A DNA stretch of 64,000 nt from Longimicrobium sp. (lineage in GTDB: Bacteria; Gemmatimonadota; Gemmatimonadetes; Longimicrobiales; Longimicrobiaceae): the NCBI GenBank assembly GCA_036389795.1, contig DASVWD010000126.1:1-64000 (forward strand), written 5' to 3'. Below, piece by piece: positions 56,268 through 63,535 of this stretch. The number at the start of each line of letters is the position of its first letter. Position 1 is the stretch's first letter. The notes under the pieces were generated by a model. That model had not been told where the DNA came from, did no database searches, and saw only the letters and a list, made by a program, of their open reading frames with translations. The position numbers and the translations under genes are program-made.

Positions 56268-57944
56268 TCAGGGCTGCTCCCAGACGTACCCCGCGACCCC
56301 TTCGTCGACCCAGCCTCCCGCCAGCGCGCCCTGGCGCTCCCCGGCGTGCGTCGTGAAGAGGTGGTCGCTGTTGCGGGGGTTGAACAGCCGGTACAGCGGC
56401 ACGGTGCCGGGCATCTGCCAGACCGCCACCAGCCCCATCTCCCCTTCCGCGGGGGTGCCGGTCTCGCAGGAGCGGTCGCGGCTGAGGAAGTGGTGGTTGT
56501 AGACGAAGCAGCGGTACAGCGGCGCGTAGTCGGGGCCCGTGAGCGAGGTCAGGAAGAAGAAGGCCTGGGTTTCCAGGACGAAGCCGCCGCGCCCCTCGGC
56601 CGGGTCGTGGCTGTACATGTGGTCGCCTCCGCCCCAGCCGGGGTTGTAGAGGCGGTGGATGGGGATGCGGGTCCAGACGTAGCCCGTGACCCCCTCGTCC
56701 ACCCATCCCCCGTCGATCAGGCCCTGGCGCTCCCCGGCGTGCGTGGTGGAGAGCCGGTGTCCCGTGGGGGCGTGCCGCACGCGGTAGAGCGGCACCGTGC
56801 CGGAGAGCGGCGAGGCGGCCAGCTGGCCGAGCGCGGCCTCCGCCTGAACCCCGGACTCGCAGAACGGGTCCCGCGACAGGAAGTGGTGCCCGCCGACCGC
56901 GCAGCGGTAGAGCGCGGCGTACGAGGCGCCGGCCGCGGAGGTCAGGTAGAAGTAGTGCCGCTGCTCCAGCACGAAGCCCAGGGAGCCGCCCTCCCGCGGA
57001 TCGGTGCCGTACAGGTGGTCGCCGCCGGCCCAGTTCGGGTTGTAGAGCCGGTGGATGGCCGTGGACGGCGGGTACATGGCCCGGAGCGTGAAGACGTCCG
57101 TCGAGCCCAGCCCCGACCGCTGGCCCATCTGCGCGTCCAGCCCCCGCCGCGAGCGGATCGTCGGCTGCCCGTTGATCGAGAAGGAGTAGGGGCCGTAGTG
57201 CATGATGGAGCCCTCGGCGTAGGTGCTGACGTCGGAGGCCCCGTCGCAGTAGTTGTAGAAGTTGTGCTGCCTCTCCGGGTCGATGTTGCCCCAGAGGATC
57301 TCCACGAACTGGTCCCGGTCGCACCGGCTCTGCTCGTGCCACATCCCCAGCGCGTGGCTCAGCTCGTGGACGGTGCTCCCGGTCCCGCAGCCGTCGGCGA
57401 GCCACACCGTCTGCGCGCCGCCGATCCGCCCGACGTACGAGGCGCAGCCGTCCGAGGGGATGACGCGGACGTAGTCGGCCTCGCCGCCGCGCGGCACGAA
57501 GCGGATCCCGACCGTGCTGGCCTCGATCTGCGCGATCGCCTGGAGAACGCGCGCGGGGTTCGGGAGCGAGGGGTCGATCACGTACGGCACGACGCCGCCG
57601 GGCCACCGGTAGAGCTGCCCGCCCGAGTTGAACCCCTCGATGCTCACCCCCCGGCGGGGACCCGGGACCGCGCCGGGGCTGGACGCGACCGATCCGGCCG
57701 GCCCGAGGACGATGTCGCCCTGCCAGACGGCCAGGCCGTCCCGCACCTCGTAGGTGATCCGCAGGGGCTTCCCGTCGCGTCCCCGGATGTAGCCGGACCG
57801 CAGCTCGCCGGGGGTGGGAAACCCTTCCGTCCGGACCTGCTTCGCGGGCGCGGGCGTCGGGCCGGCGGGGCCGACCGGCTCGTCCTGGCACGCGGCGAGG
57901 GCGGCCAGCAGCGCCGGCGCCGCGATGCGGAGTACGTTTCGCAA
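56268..57944 (-). CDS. Astacin-family (M12A-like) metalloprotease lipoprotein with DUF5648-like C-terminal modules
   Basis: A 558-residue protein from a TTG preceded by AGGAG. Lipobox LAALAAC (C19). Protease domain (about 100-265): zinc motif HELSHALGMWHEQSR (H193, H197, H203, E194) and the Met-turn SIMHY (246-250). Residues about 280-558 hold four repeat-like lobes: IHRLYNPNWAGGDHLYGTDP, a GTVPLYRVRHAPTGHRLSTT lobe, a second IHRLYNPGWGGGDHMY lobe and PLYRLFNPRNSDHLFTTHAG, the DUF5648-like pattern. This suggests secretion and substrate or wall binding. The protease is probably lipid-anchored outside the cytoplasm. Confidence 0.88.
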   Translation of the reverse strand: MRNVLRIAAPALLAALAACQDEPVGPAGPTPAPAKQVRTEGFPTPGELRSGYIRGRDGKPLRITYEVRDGLAVWQGDIVLGPAGSVASSPGAVPGPRRGVSIEGFNSGGQLYRWPGGVVPYVIDPSLPNPARVLQAIAQIEASTVGIRFVPRGGEADYVRVIPSDGCASYVGRIGGAQTVWLADGCGTGSTVHELSHALGMWHEQSRCDRDQFVEILWGNIDPERQHNFYNYCDGASDVSTYAEGSIMHYGPYSFSINGQPTIRSRRGLDAQMGQRSGLGSTDVFTLRAMYPPSTAIHRLYNPNWAGGDHLYGTDPREGGSLGFVLEQRHYFYLTSAAGASYAALYRCAVGGHHFLSRDPFCESGVQAEAALGQLAASPLSGTVPLYRVRHAPTGHRLSTTHAGERQGLIDGGWVDEGVTGYVWTRIPIHRLYNPGWGGGDHMYSHDPAEGRGGFVLETQAFFFLTSLTGPDYAPLYRCFVYNHHFLSRDRSCETGTPAEGEMGLVAVWQMPGTVPLYRLFNPRNSDHLFTTHAGERQGALAGGWVDEGVAGYVWEQP

Positions 57945-58193
57945 GGGATTTTCTCCTGAAGGAATGGTGGGTGGGACTGAAGACGGTCGGTCTCGACATG
58001 AAGGGATGCTCATCCATGGGGATGCGCGTGTTTCCTGGTTTCTTCCTCCTTTCGACCTGGATCCCGGCGAGCACATTCAGCCGGGGCGGCACGGGACGTT
58101 CGAGGAGAACAGCCTAAAAATGCGACACCGAGTTGTCAATATATATTTCCCGCAATGTCGAGCACTGAGGCAAGAGGAGCCAGGAAGCCGGCA
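57945..58193. other. Spacer between astacin-like and holin-like genes
   Basis: About 330 bp including the terminator at 58194. An AT-rich patch near 58110-58150 (AACAGCCTAAAAATGCG, TCAATATATATTTCC) may hold the astacin-like promoter. No gene seen. Confidence 0.4.
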
Positions 58194-58649: not shown

Positions 58650-59230
58650 GGTCGGCCCCCGGTGCGGGTGGATGCGGCGACGGTAGTCTGCCGCTGTACG
58701 AAACGTCGCCCGGCGGGGTTGCACAAGAGCCGGAGGCCGCGCGACGGGCCGCGGCCTGTCCGGGCCGTGGGAAGCAAACCCCACGTGATCACATACTTAT
58801 TGTGCCACATCAAGTTAGCTCCACCCCTTACTCGGCGCGTACGGAACTTGCGTTCATAATTTCCGACCCTATATGTGGCGACGTATGGCGGGGTGATTGG
58901 CGCGGGCCTCCGATCCGGTTGCACGCCTGCCCGCAGCCGTCGACGCACGTGTGGCCTTCGATTCCATTGCGGATCTTTGCCGGGGCAGACGGCCCCACGG
59001 GAATCGCCGTATCCGGAAACCGTGTTTTCGTGCGATGATCCGTTCCGAAGCGCAGCTTGCGACAGGCCTCTTTCCGCCATCCCGAGAGCAGGAGGGCGGT
59101 GAGGAAGTATGTCCCTGTGGTGTCGCCGTGTCCGCGAGCATCTGACGGCCGCGTCCAATCCGGGCGCGGCCGTTCACGTCGGTCCCGCGGGGGCGGGGCC
59201 GGCCATCACCCCCACTCTGGAGGGCAGCCC
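58650..59230. other. Spacer upstream of the cysteine-rich peptide gene, with candidate promoter
   Basis: 580 bp without a convincing gene. TTGCGT (58848-58853) and TATATG (58870-58875), 16 bp apart on the plus strand, form a candidate promoter in an AT-richer patch. It would give a leader of about 350 nt for the peptide gene. Short open frames in this leader have no RBS or family match. Confidence 0.4.
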
Positions 59231-59557
59231 ATGCGCAAGCTCAAGCTCGACCTGGACCAGCTGGTCGTGGACTCGTTCCACACGGCATCGCCGGCGCCGA
59301 AGAGCGGCACCGTGTTCGGCGAGCAGTGCACCTGCTACACCAACTGCACGTGTCCAGGGTGCCCCACCTGCTACGCGTCGTGTAACGGCACCTGCGACGC
59401 CACCTGCCCCGCCACCTGCGCGTACACGTGCGACGACGCCAGCTGCGGCTGCCCCGTCGGGACTGCCGACTACACGTGCGAGTACTGCACCCAGTACGAC
59501 GCCACCTGCAACGGCTACGGCACGTGCGGCAGATATCCGTGCCGCGACATCCCCTGA
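59231..59557 (+). CDS. Cysteine-rich peptide with RiPP-like leader
   Basis: A 108-residue protein preceded by GGAGGGCAGCCC. The leader MRKLKLDLDQLVVDSFHTAS resembles the LxLDxLxVxSF leader of Bacteroidota/Gemmatimonadota RiPP-like precursors (pinensin-type). The C-terminal 80 residues hold 18 cysteines, many spaced as CxxxC with Thr/Ser before the Cys (YASC, NGTC, DATC, PATC, AYTC). Such peptides could be modified natural products or metal-binding proteins. No modifying enzyme is adjacent. Export or cleavage signals are not obvious. A terminator follows. Confidence 0.8.
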   Translation: MRKLKLDLDQLVVDSFHTASPAPKSGTVFGEQCTCYTNCTCPGCPTCYASCNGTCDATCPATCAYTCDDASCGCPVGTADYTCEYCTQYDATCNGYGTCGRYPCRDIP

Positions 59558-59859: not shown

Positions 59860-61770
59860 ATGCCTTTCAAGCAGTACCTCCACCAGATCGAAACTGCCTT
59901 GCGCGCCGGTGATGCTACAGAGCACACACACCGTCCGGCGCTGAAGTCGCTGCTGGAGGCGCTGGGCGACGGAATTATCGCCACGAATGAACCCAAGCGC
60001 GACGAAGAGATCGGCGCGCCGGACTACATCGTTGCTCGGGGACGGGTGCCATTAGGCTACCTAGAGGCAAAAGATATTGGAAAACCGCTCGGGACGGCGG
60101 AGAAGACCTCCCAGCTCAAACGCTACCGTGAGGGGCTGGGGAACCTGATCCTGACCGATTACCTGGAGTTCCGCTGGTACGTCGGCGGGGAACATCGGCT
60201 TACAGCGCGGCTCGGAACAGCAGGAGATGACGGGAAGGTACGGCGGGAGCGCGGCGGCGAAGAAGCGGTGCGCGAACTGTTACACGCGTTTCTGACGACA
60301 GGAGCGCCAGTAATCGGGCGGCCGAAGGAGTTGGCAGAGCGCATGGCAGGACTAGCACGGCTGATCCGTGACGCCATCCGCGAAGCGTTCGGAGTTGAGG
60401 CCGAGCAGGGACGTCTGCACAACCAATTTGAAGGGTTCCGGCGGGTGTTGCTGCACGATCTAACGCCGGAGCAGTTCGCGGACATGTACGCCCAGACCAT
60501 CGCGTATGGCCTTTTCGCGGCGCGGGTAAACGCGCCGGAGGACCCCGCCTTCACCCGCCAGCACGCCGCATATGAGCTGCCGCGCACTAACCCTTTTCTG
60601 CGCAAGACATTCAACGTGATTGCCGGACCGGACCTGGATCGGCGTATCGAGTGGGCGGTGGACGATCTGGCTGAGTTGCTGAATCGAGCCAGAATGGATG
60701 AGATCCTGCGAGATTTCGGGAAGCGAACGCGCCAAGAAGACCCGATCGTTCATTTCTACGAGACGTTTCTCGCAGCCTACGACCCCAAGATGCGCGAGGC
60801 ACGAGGCGTCTACTACACGCCGGAGCCGGTAGTCAGCTACATAGTTCGAAGTGTGGACCACCTGCTTAAGACGGAGTTCGGGTTACCGGATGGGCTGGCG
60901 GATACTTCCAAGGTGAAGATCCCCAACCCAGACCCCGGCACGAAGTCTCGGAAAACGAAGGACTTGGAGGTACACCGCGTTCAGATTCTGGACCCAGCTA
61001 CAGGAACGGGCACCTTCCTGCACGGCGCCATTGATCAGATTCACGCGCACCTTTCGGAGCAGGGCCAATCGGGGCTCTGGTCGGCGTACGTCCGCGACCA
61101 CCTGCTGCCCCGCATCTGGGGATTCGAGCTGCTGATGGCACCGTACGCGGTGGCACACATGAAGATCGGCTTGCAGCTCAAGCAGTTGGGGTATGACTTC
61201 GGTAGCGACGAACGGCTCGGGATCTATCTCACCAATGCGCTAGAAGAGGCGCACGAGATGTCGGGACTGCCCCTCTTTGCGCAATGGATCGCGGACGAGG
61301 CCAACCAAGCCAGCCGAGTGAAGGCGGAGCTTCCGATCCTGGTGGTGATTGGGAATCCGCCATACTCAGGAATCTCTGCGAACATGGCACCGGAGATGGC
61401 AGCGATCGTAGAACCATACAAGTGGGTGGATGGAGAGCCGCTCGGCGAGCGCAAGCACTGGCTTCAGAATGATTACGTTAAATTTATCCGTTTCGCACAA
61501 ATGCGGATAGAGCGGACAGGGCATGGGATTCTCGGATTCATCACCGACAACAGCTATCTAGATGGACCGACGTTCCGCGGGATGCGGCTGAGCCTGATGC
61601 AGACGTTCGACGATATCTACATTCTGGATCTTCATGGCAATTCGAAGAAAAAGGAGACTGCACCGGATGGTAGTCCGGACGAGAACGTATTCGACATCAC
61701 ACAAGGAGTATCAATCCTGCTCGCGGTTAAGAAGCCGCAGAGACGATGGACTTCGAGGAGTTCGAGGTGA
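59860..61770 (+). CDS. Type ISP-like restriction-modification enzyme, N-terminal and methylase part (interrupted gene)
   Basis: A 636-residue product. Residues about 25-120 form a PD-(D/E)xK-like nuclease: PDY (54-56) and LEAK (E69, K71). A helical linker follows, then an N6-adenine methylase: motif I DPATGTGTFL (about 378-387) and NPPYSG (N499-Y502). The order matches single-chain type ISP/IIG-like enzymes without a helicase. It ends abruptly after VSILLAVKKPQ in a frame overlapping a small inserted gene. The missing C-terminal target-recognition half is encoded at 62217-63535. It may act in two pieces or be inactive. The GC content is lower than the flanks. Confidence 0.85.
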   Translation: MPFKQYLHQIETALRAGDATEHTHRPALKSLLEALGDGIIATNEPKRDEEIGAPDYIVARGRVPLGYLEAKDIGKPLGTAEKTSQLKRYREGLGNLILTDYLEFRWYVGGEHRLTARLGTAGDDGKVRRERGGEEAVRELLHAFLTTGAPVIGRPKELAERMAGLARLIRDAIREAFGVEAEQGRLHNQFEGFRRVLLHDLTPEQFADMYAQTIAYGLFAARVNAPEDPAFTRQHAAYELPRTNPFLRKTFNVIAGPDLDRRIEWAVDDLAELLNRARMDEILRDFGKRTRQEDPIVHFYETFLAAYDPKMREARGVYYTPEPVVSYIVRSVDHLLKTEFGLPDGLADTSKVKIPNPDPGTKSRKTKDLEVHRVQILDPATGTGTFLHGAIDQIHAHLSEQGQSGLWSAYVRDHLLPRIWGFELLMAPYAVAHMKIGLQLKQLGYDFGSDERLGIYLTNALEEAHEMSGLPLFAQWIADEANQASRVKAELPILVVIGNPPYSGISANMAPEMAAIVEPYKWVDGEPLGERKHWLQNDYVKFIRFAQMRIERTGHGILGFITDNSYLDGPTFRGMRLSLMQTFDDIYILDLHGNSKKKETAPDGSPDENVFDITQGVSILLAVKKPQRRWTSRSSR

Positions 61771-61991
61771 TAGGCCCGATTCGACGCGTGAAGACCATCG
61801 CCTCTGGCCGCCGTGTCAAGGCTCGAGATCGCCTCAACCAGTTGTTCGGGCTCGGGAGGTGGAAAAAGCGGAAAGCCGAAGCTACCGTTCGGATGAGAAG
61901 CGACGGTTCGATTCGGAAAGCTGAGATTCACTGGTTTGAGGCTCACGGTGTCGGCCGTGTACTCGGCAAGATCAAGTACTTCTTAGACTAA
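61746..61991 (+). CDS. Small inserted protein (HWFEAHGVGR family)
   Basis: An 81-residue basic protein: FEVIGPIRRVKTIASGRRV, LNQLFGLGRWKKRKAEATV, IRKAEIHWFEAHGVGR and KIKYFLD. From memory, small stand-alone proteins ending ...ELHWYEAHGIG...KIKRxL are common in cyanobacteria and other bacteria. Their function is not known. Its ATG overlaps the end of the first restriction-modification part and its TAA overlaps the next ATG (TAATG), so it is translationally coupled on both sides. Confidence 0.75.
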   Translation: MDFEEFEVIGPIRRVKTIASGRRVKARDRLNQLFGLGRWKKRKAEATVRMRSDGSIRKAEIHWFEAHGVGRVLGKIKYFLD

Positions 61992-63535
61992 TGACTGAGA
62001 AACTCGATCATCGGGAGCAGAAAGTTCGGTGCCTTGCGACGGGGCGGAGGAGCGCGTTCCTCACAGTGGGTAAAACCTACGTGGCAATAGCAGACGAGGA
62101 TGCCGCGTCACACGGTCTAATCAGGGTAATTGACGAATCAGGAGAGGACTACCTTTATCCTGCTGAGTACTTCGTACCGGTAGCTTTGGAAGAAACTGCC
62201 GGAGCATCTCCATACTCCGACTTGGCACGAGTATATCACTCGAGTCTCTGGGGGATGCGCGACAAGAAGTACTCGCAACTCTCCGCGACTAACGTTGAGA
62301 ATACAAATTGGCATGCACTCTCTCCGCTTCCAGCGCTCTACCTATTTGCCCCACGGGATCTTACATACCACACAGAGTACGTATTCGGGTGGAATATCTC
62401 GCTCGTGTTTTCGGTCTTTGGACTCGGTGTGCAGACTTCAAGGGATGCGCTTGTCATCGGTTTCTCGGAGGAGGAACTCGTCAGGCGAATCGAGCGTTTC
62501 ACTGATCCTCATATCGGTGATGAGGTACTTCGGTCAGAGTTTTTCCCAGGCAAGCGTGTACGAGACTATCTTCCCGGCGATACCCGGCAGTGGTCGCTCT
62601 CGGCGGCGAGAAAGCGACTTTGTGCGACTGCGGACTGGAAGGGGAGCATTCGTCCAATCCTGTACCGCCCATTCGACGTTCGGTACATCCTCTATACTGC
62701 AACAATGGTAGATTGGCCACGACCCGAAGTAATGGGACAGATGCTGAGGCCGAATGTCGCGCTCATTGGCAATCGACAGTCGAAAGAATCATTCGCCGTA
62801 TTGTGTGCATCGGGATTGACGGAGCGAAAGATTGCGGCAGTGTACGACGCCAGCACTACGTTTCCCCTGTATCTTTACTCGGATGATCTTTTTTCTTCCG
62901 CAGAGGGAAGACGCCGCCCGAACCTCACGCCCGAATTCATAGCTGACTTCTCTTCCCGAATCGGGATGGAGTTCATTCCTGACGGTATCGGCGACCGAGT
63001 GACGACATTCGGTCCAGAGGACGTCTTCTACTACATGTACGCGGTCTTTCACTCGCCCGTTTACCGGGAGCGTTATGCCGAGTTCCTAAAGATCGACTTC
63101 CCCCGCCTGCCTCTTACGACGAACGTGGAGCTATTCCGTGAGTTATGCGCGCTGGGGGTTGAGTTGGCCGGTCTGCACCGAATGGAGAAGCACGCGCCAC
63201 TAATTACCCGTTATCCTGTACCTGGCGACAACACCCTGGACGCATCTCGCTACACCGCTCCAGACCAGGGTGCCGTCGAAGGCCGGGTGTGGATTAACGC
63301 AACGCAATATTTCGAGGGTGTACCGCCTGAGGTGTGGGAGTTTCGCATCGGCGGTTATCAAGTGGCGGACAAGTGGCTCAAGGACCGCAAGGGTCGCCGG
63401 CTTACCTACGACGACCTCACCCACTATCAGCGCACCCTCGCCGCGCTCCGCCGTACAATGGAGTTGATGGACATGGTGGAGGAGGCGATCGAGCGGCATG
63501 GCGGATGGCCGCTTGCGGGAAGCGCACGTGGGTAG
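61991..63535 (+). CDS. Small YxVxxDE/SGEDYLYP-type protein fused to the type ISP C-terminal specificity half
   Basis: A 514-residue product. Residues 1 to about 74 are a separate small-protein type: VGKTYVAIADEDAASHGLIR and VIDESGEDYLYPAEYFVPV, known to me as stand-alone proteins that often accompany the HWYEAHG type. From SDLARVYHSSLWGMRDKKYS (about residue 76) onward it is the interrupted methylase. It includes the C-terminal specificity domain (YFEGVPPEVWEFRIGGYQV, WLKDRKGRRLTYDDLTHYQR). The fusion is in frame, so this half could still be made and bind DNA. Start ATG overlaps the previous stop. Confidence 0.82.
   Translation: MTEKLDHREQKVRCLATGRRSAFLTVGKTYVAIADEDAASHGLIRVIDESGEDYLYPAEYFVPVALEETAGASPYSDLARVYHSSLWGMRDKKYSQLSATNVENTNWHALSPLPALYLFAPRDLTYHTEYVFGWNISLVFSVFGLGVQTSRDALVIGFSEEELVRRIERFTDPHIGDEVLRSEFFPGKRVRDYLPGDTRQWSLSAARKRLCATADWKGSIRPILYRPFDVRYILYTATMVDWPRPEVMGQMLRPNVALIGNRQSKESFAVLCASGLTERKIAAVYDASTTFPLYLYSDDLFSSAEGRRRPNLTPEFIADFSSRIGMEFIPDGIGDRVTTFGPEDVFYYMYAVFHSPVYRERYAEFLKIDFPRLPLTTNVELFRELCALGVELAGLHRMEKHAPLITRYPVPGDNTLDASRYTAPDQGAVEGRVWINATQYFEGVPPEVWEFRIGGYQVADKWLKDRKGRRLTYDDLTHYQRTLAALRRTMELMDMVEEAIERHGGWPLAGSARG

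What the first reader, a model, noticed from the sequence alone, without database searches (positions are those of the whole stretch)
61740..62216. A two-gene small-protein cassette interrupts a restriction-modification gene and fuses in frame to its C-terminal half
The type ISP-like enzyme runs to VSILLAVKKPQ, and its normal continuation (LARVYHSSLWG...) resumes about 475 bp later in a different reading frame. The stretch between does not look like random frameshifted methylase. It encodes a complete 81-residue protein ending HWFEAHGVGR...KIKYFLD, then a 74-residue segment with VIDESGEDYLYP. From memory, both are independent small-protein families seen in other bacteria, often side by side. 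The second is fused to the methylase specificity half, and the junctions overlap (61746-61770 and TAATG at 61991). This looks like insertion of a mobile or selfish two-gene unit into an inter-domain linker, leaving a possibly functional split enzyme.
Basis: partly seen in the sequence, partly recalled or inferred. Interest (0 to 1): 0.88.

Follow-up and report, generated by a model that had tools for sequence, protein, structure and literature searches.

The report
Toxin-antidote-like gene pair splits restriction enzyme
A two-gene unit that looks like a toxin and its antidote, widespread in bacteria and also carried by phages, has landed inside a DNA restriction-modification gene, cutting the enzyme in two and fusing the antidote-like protein to the half that reads the target DNA; neither the toxicity nor the enzyme's survival has been tested.

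Summary
A horizontally acquired, low-GC Type ISP/IIG restriction-modification gene (59860-63535) is interrupted by a ~470-bp insert. The insert encodes FamA (81 aa, 61746-61991) and then FamB (~72 aa), which runs in frame into the enzyme's C-terminal half. Intact homologues are single ORFs with only ~5-12 linker residues at this point, so no recognisable enzyme sequence was lost. FamA and FamB form a real, un-named bicistron: 80 of 80 best FamA loci in GTDB (many phyla) carry FamB immediately downstream (median 3 nt). In phages FamA is the C-terminal domain of MuF/minor-capsid/portal proteins with FamB as the next gene, the layout of MuF toxin-immunity pairs. FamB persists alone or beside FamA remnants in several genomes; FamA without FamB was not seen. 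Likeliest reading: a toxin-antidote cassette inserted in a loop near the end of the methyltransferase domain, with three overlapping, probably translationally coupled ORFs. Both enzyme halves keep homologue-level conservation, so a working two-chain enzyme addicted to its own specificity domain is possible but unproven. No other in-gene insertion was found. Toxicity, antidote activity and methylation are untested.

The parts
59860..61770 (+). N-terminal half of the Type ISP/IIG restriction-modification enzyme (PD-(D/E)XK-like nuclease segment + N6-adenine methyltransferase, motifs DPATGTGTF and NPPY); last ~7 codons are read in the alternative frame of the insert
61746..61991 (+). FamA: complete 81-aa small protein, probable toxin; overlaps the N half by 25 nt
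   Evidence: pair conservation; phage MuF C-terminal domain
61991..62212 (+). FamB: ~72-aa SH3-like small protein, probable antidote/immunity domain; start codon overlaps FamA stop (TAATG), fused in frame to the enzyme's C half
62213..63535 (+). C-terminal half of the enzyme: last ~60 residues before the TRD plus the Type ISP C-terminal specificity domain (PF18135)
61740..62216 (+). insert (approximate ends): sequence absent from uninterrupted homologues

Best explanation
FamA-FamB is a mobile toxin-antidote cassette that inserted into a loop near the end of the methyltransferase domain of a Type ISP/IIG enzyme. SHOWN by sequence: an insert of ~470 bp without loss of recognisable enzyme sequence; FamA intact; FamB intact and fused in frame to the C-terminal (specificity) half; three overlapping ORFs (N half, FamA, FamB-TRD); FamA and FamB conserved as a bicistron across many phyla; the same pair in phages, with FamA as the C-terminal domain of MuF/portal-adjacent proteins and FamB next to it. 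INFERRED: FamA is the toxin and FamB its antidote; FamB-TRD is translated by coupling to FamA, and FamA by coupling to the N half; because the antidote is one polypeptide with the specificity domain, loss of the C half would unleash FamA, so the cassette selects for keeping the locus. The two enzyme halves may reassociate into a working split enzyme (a nuclease-methylase chain plus a FamB-tagged specificity chain), but this step has only permissive support.
For: Enzyme homologues are uninterrupted single ORFs, colinear on both sides of the insert. FamA-FamB pairing: 80/80 loci, same strand and order, median gap 3 nt, 24 overlapping. Toxin-immunity layout: 23/23 IMG/VR FamA loci (several redundant) have FamB adjacent; in 15 of them, about ten distinct, FamA ends a ~360-630-aa protein, matching Phage_Mu_F, Phage_min_cap2 or a portal protein in nine of the ten scanned. 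MuF proteins are described polymorphic toxins with a small, presumed immunity ORF immediately downstream (PMC5576092). Asymmetric loss: FamB alone (L019, L032, L184) or beside FamA remnants (L012, L181); FamA with three FamB copies in L005; no FamA without FamB. Window FamB keeps all 13 residues conserved in >=90% of the family; FamA misses 3. The window enzyme keeps 95% (N) and 92% (C) of columns invariant in the other six homologues, as intact homologues do (88-98% and 88-100%).
Against: No toxicity or binding has been measured for any member. FamA has no PDB fold match (best E 0.94), so no catalytic activity can be named, and it matches no Pfam, NCBIfam, PHROGs or PADLOC toxin model. FamA G44, invariant in the other 79 members, is A here, and its end branch is the longest of the 80 GTDB/window rows, which could mean decay. 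A recent insertion would also leave both enzyme halves well conserved. The site lies inside the methyltransferase domain, so reassociation is not guaranteed.
Confidence: 0.66

Rival explanations
1. The cassette is a toxin-antidote pair but the restriction-modification enzyme is dead; the two halves are a recent wreck, kept open only because not enough time has passed.
For: The split falls inside the methyltransferase domain about 50 residues before the TRD. Conservation of both halves is also expected after a recent insertion. No second interrupted example was found.
Against: Both halves are free of stops and frameshifts over 1,069 codons, and the FamB-TRD fusion is in frame at a tolerant loop; a random insertion would rarely give this. 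GC3 of the insert (0.69 and 0.51) resembles the enzyme (0.70 and 0.63), not the one host gene measured (0.93), suggesting that the interrupted gene was transferred as a unit.
Confidence: 0.4
2. FamA-FamB is a conserved bicistron with a housekeeping or regulatory role (for example nucleic-acid binding), not a toxin-antidote pair; its place in phage structural proteins reflects that function.
For: No toxicity data; FamA has an unassigned fold with conserved basic and aromatic residues (W39, K41, K43, H62, W63, E65); FamB is SH3-like without a known antitoxin fold.
Against: Patchy presence (12 of 200 genomes of the phylum have any FamA match), wide spread across phyla, FamB-only leftovers, extra FamB copies, and the MuF C-terminal position with an adjacent small ORF.
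Confidence: 0.25
3. The layout is an assembly or sequencing artefact.
For: Draft genome of 285 contigs; no reads available.
Against: The insert is in frame, both junctions lie inside coding sequence of matching composition, and no second copy of this FamA exists in the genome.
Confidence: 0.04

Closest known systems
MuF polymorphic toxins of temperate phages (PMC5576092)
   Same: FamA-type domains are C-terminal to MuF/minor capsid proteins, with a small gene (FamB) immediately downstream, as described for MuF toxin-immunity pairs
   Different: In the window FamA is a free-standing 81-aa protein inside a restriction-modification gene; no capsid domain, and its activity is unknown
Type II toxin-antitoxin modules (for example the RelE/ParE superfamily, PMC11980606)
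   Same: two small, overlapping or adjacent genes, widespread and patchy
   Different: FamA does not match the RelE/ParE (BECR) fold in the PDB search; FamB is SH3-like with no recognisable DNA-binding domain; no function tested
Type ISP / Type IIG restriction-modification enzymes (LlaBIII, LlaGI; PMC4872093)
   Same: homologous methyltransferase and TRD, colinear; closest to single-chain ~1,050-aa enzymes without helicase
   Different: interrupted at LlaBIII ~1148-1156 and divided over two polypeptides, one carrying FamB
CreTA, toxin-antitoxin modules that make cells depend on CRISPR-Cas (PMC9458426)
   Same: the same idea of an addiction module tied to a defence system
   Different: CreTA is RNA-based and depends on the Cas effector; here the tie would be a covalent antidote-specificity-domain fusion, and it is only inferred
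Ntox50 RNase domain (PMC3482391), also acquired by phages
   Same: a toxin domain found in phage proteins
   Different: no Pfam-level match between FamA and any toxin family; profile-profile comparison not done

Membership tests
Type ISP/IIG restriction-modification enzyme | N6-adenine methyltransferase with motifs I and IV plus C-terminal Type_ISP_C specificity domain | tested here: met
   N6_Mtase 1.7e-7, Type_ISP_C 2.8e-92, motifs DPATGTGTF and NPPY present
Type ISP/IIG restriction-modification enzyme | single polypeptide | tested here: not met
   split over two ORFs by the insert; homologues are single ORFs
Type ISP enzyme sensu stricto | Mrr nuclease + SF2 helicase-like ATPase before the methyltransferase | tested here: not met
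   636-aa N half has a nuclease-like segment and methyltransferase but no helicase domain
Type ISP/IIG restriction-modification enzyme | DNA methylation and cleavage activity | not testable with these tools
   needs long-read methylation data or biochemistry
Toxin-antitoxin / toxin-immunity pair | two adjacent small genes, conserved as a pair | tested here: met
   80/80 loci paired, median gap 3 nt
Toxin-antitoxin / toxin-immunity pair | toxin gene does not persist without the antidote gene, while the antidote can | tested here: met
   FamB orphans and FamA remnants found, no FamA orphan; sample limited to the best matches
Toxin-antitoxin / toxin-immunity pair | toxicity of one protein neutralised by the other | not testable with these tools
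   needs an expression experiment
MuF polymorphic toxin system | toxin domain C-terminal to a MuF domain with small downstream ORF | tested here: not met
   met by the phage relatives but not by the window copy itself, which is stand-alone
RelE/ParE (BECR) toxins | BECR fold | tested here: not met
   pLDDT 91 model gives no RelE/ParE or other significant PDB match
Autonomous mobile element | transposase/recombinase, terminal repeats or target-site duplication | tested here: not met
   only short chance-like repeats at the insert; the two small ORFs are the whole insert

The most novel reading that the evidence does not exclude
The insertion created a working two-chain restriction-modification enzyme in which the specificity chain carries the antidote to a toxin encoded between the two halves, so that loss of the specificity half is punished by the toxin: a defence enzyme physically addicted to its own specificity domain, and a route from a single-chain enzyme to a separate specificity subunit.
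Probability: 0.22. Interest if true: 0.85.

Novelty: new variant of a known kind. Interest (0 to 1): 0.64.

Why it matters
It gives a concrete, testable case of a toxin-antidote-like cassette landing inside a defence enzyme and fusing its antidote half to the enzyme's DNA-reading half. It also exposes a very widespread gene pair (hundreds of genomes, phage capsid fusions) that has no name in Pfam, NCBIfam, PHROGs or PADLOC. If the enzyme still works, it shows how a single-chain enzyme can become a two-subunit one and be protected by addiction.

Tried and rejected
Ancestral three-ORF layout: rejected, all homologues found are uninterrupted at this site. Second copy of the same fusion: none in 395 genomes of the phylum, 72,556 plasmid records, 50,697 phage records or IMG/VR at the sensitivity used. 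FamA as RelE/ParE-like RNase: no PDB fold match. Named family for FamA or FamB: only stray weak hits such as NodA, cobalt-precorrin-6A reductase or CarD, judged chance. Target-site duplication or inverted repeats at the insert: only 8-12-nt matches of the kind expected by chance. Origin from the host's own FamB locus: not supported; that locus (L032) has no FamA, and the FamA of the same-genus G180 locus (L005) does not group with the window copy, though the tree is weakly resolved. The 80 GTDB bicistrons inside other genes: the five whose flanks were annotated all lie between separate genes (aconitase/homocitrate synthase, succinyl-CoA ligase/NAD synthase, TIR/UvrD, integrase/FGE-sulfatase, unknown/MoxR); the others were listed by ORF geometry only.

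Full report
WHAT IS THERE. Three overlapping ORFs on the + strand: 59860-61770 (636 aa), 61746-61991 (81 aa) and 61991-63535 (514 aa). The first is the N-terminal part of a Type ISP/IIG restriction-modification enzyme (PADLOC REase_MTase_IIG PDLC03610 E 2e-196; Pfam N6_Mtase). Residues from ~75 of the third are its C-terminal specificity half (Pfam Type_ISP_C E 2.8e-92). Between them lie FamA (81 aa, complete) and FamB (~72 aa), the latter continuing in frame into the enzyme. The N ORF runs 25 nt into FamA; FamA's TAA and FamB's ATG share a base (TAATG); neither internal start has a strong Shine-Dalgarno sequence by eye, and the promoter scan found none. Translational coupling is therefore the likely way both downstream ORFs are read (inference).

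THE INSERT IS DERIVED. Homologues in the phylum and on plasmids of Alphaproteobacteria, Gammaproteobacteria and cyanobacteria are single ORFs, colinear with the window on both sides: 46-48% identity over the N part and 33-42% over the C part for the five plasmid enzymes. At the insertion point they have only a short linker (VKRKSNNRDNRELAKVWHSELWG, VKRQNAKQQLANVYHTDLYG) where the window has VKKPQRR, then the insert, then (Y)SDLARVYHSSLWG. Searches with the 514-aa ORF split cleanly: FamB hits end at residue ~63-77, and nearly all enzyme hits start at residue 62 or later, mostly 76-86. In LlaBIII the site corresponds to about residues 1148-1156, while the TRD starts at 1205 (PMC4872093). The insert is thus in a loop between two strand-like segments at the end of the methyltransferase domain, not exactly the inter-domain linker.

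THE PAIR IS REAL AND WIDESPREAD. The loci span Acidobacteriota, Chloroflexota, Planctomycetota, Nitrospirota, Pseudomonadota, Cyanobacteriota, Myxococcota and others. No Pfam, NCBIfam, PHROGs or PADLOC family was found to cover FamA, and no Pfam, NCBIfam or PADLOC family FamB; no solved structure matches by sequence. FamA is predicted with confidence (pLDDT 91; beta-beta-alpha-beta-beta-beta) but has no PDB fold match. FamB is a modest model (pLDDT 77) resembling SH3 barrels (best E 2.7e-3, probability 1.0). FamA's invariant residues include W39, K41, K43, E60, H62, W63 and E65.

WHY A TOXIN AND ANTIDOTE. In IMG/VR the FamA domain is found mostly at the C-terminal end of long phage proteins; of ten scanned, nine match Phage_Mu_F, Phage_min_cap2 or a portal protein. 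Every one of the 23 viral loci (several are redundant contigs) has FamB right behind it, and the fold search independently hit a phage minor capsid protein (TM 0.72, 32% identity, E 1.2e-3). MuF proteins are described as polymorphic toxins whose C-terminal toxin domain is followed by a small, presumed immunity ORF (PMC5576092; PMC3482391). Loss is asymmetric: FamB persists alone (own genome contig C116 = L032, G032 = L019, G251 = L184) or next to FamA remnants (L012, L181), and one same-genus relative carries FamA with three FamB copies (L005), but no FamA without FamB was met. These are marks of a toxin and its antidote; toxicity itself is not shown anywhere.

STATE OF THE WINDOW COPY. FamB keeps all 13 residues conserved in at least 90% of the family, although its usual C-terminal tail is replaced by the enzyme (phage FamB also lacks that tail). 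FamA departs at three such positions, including G44 to A. The enzyme keeps 95% (N half, from residue 151) and 92% (C half) of columns that are invariant in six other homologues, like those homologues themselves. Both are compatible with function, but also with recent insertion. The region is 53-62% GC in a ~70% GC host, and the insert's third-position GC (0.69, 0.51) resembles the enzyme's (0.70, 0.63) and not that of the one host gene measured (0.93). This suggests that the interrupted gene arrived as a unit (inference).

MECHANISM PROPOSED. Translation of the N half delivers ribosomes to FamA and then to FamB-TRD. FamB, as antidote, keeps FamA in check; because FamB is covalently part of the specificity half, loss or destabilisation of that polypeptide frees the toxin, and loss of the whole locus would be punished if the toxin outlives FamB-TRD. 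The enzyme halves may pair again across the loop. Shown: anatomy, conservation, pairing. Inferred: toxicity, antidote function, coupling, addiction, enzyme activity.

LIMITS. In-gene insertion of this pair was found only here; five annotated bicistrons elsewhere sit between separate genes. The genome-wide sample is the best 80 of at least 567 and is biased to close relatives. Other phyla could not be searched by genome handle. No read data were available.

Noticed in passing
window 59057-59557 (+): A small, strongly cysteine- and threonine-rich ORF (CTCYTNCTCPGCPTCYASCNGTCDATCPATCAYTCDD) directly upstream of the restriction-modification gene, resembling a ribosomally made peptide precursor.
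   Followed up: no
window 56268-58076 (-): Predicted astacin-like metalloprotease (HELSHALGMWHE motif) with repeated C-terminal HRLYNPxWxGGDH units.
   Followed up: no
L005 677-1731 (-), genome G180 of the same genus: FamA followed by three divergent tandem FamB copies beside a ferritin-like gene; the apparently syntenic place in the window's own genome (L032 1465-1701 -) keeps one FamB and no FamA.
   Followed up: partly
L167 1513-3180 (+): FamA domain fused to the C-terminus of a phage portal protein, with FamB next to it; L165 and L036 carry it on minor capsid protein 2.
   Followed up: partly
L089 6980-12428 (+): FamA-FamB lies between a TIR-domain gene and a UvrD/PD-(D/E)XK helicase-nuclease gene, a defence-like neighbourhood.
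   Followed up: partly
L086 7992-8458 and 14256-14703: Two separate FamA-FamB pairs within 7 kb on opposite strands in one Phycisphaerae contig.
   Followed up: no
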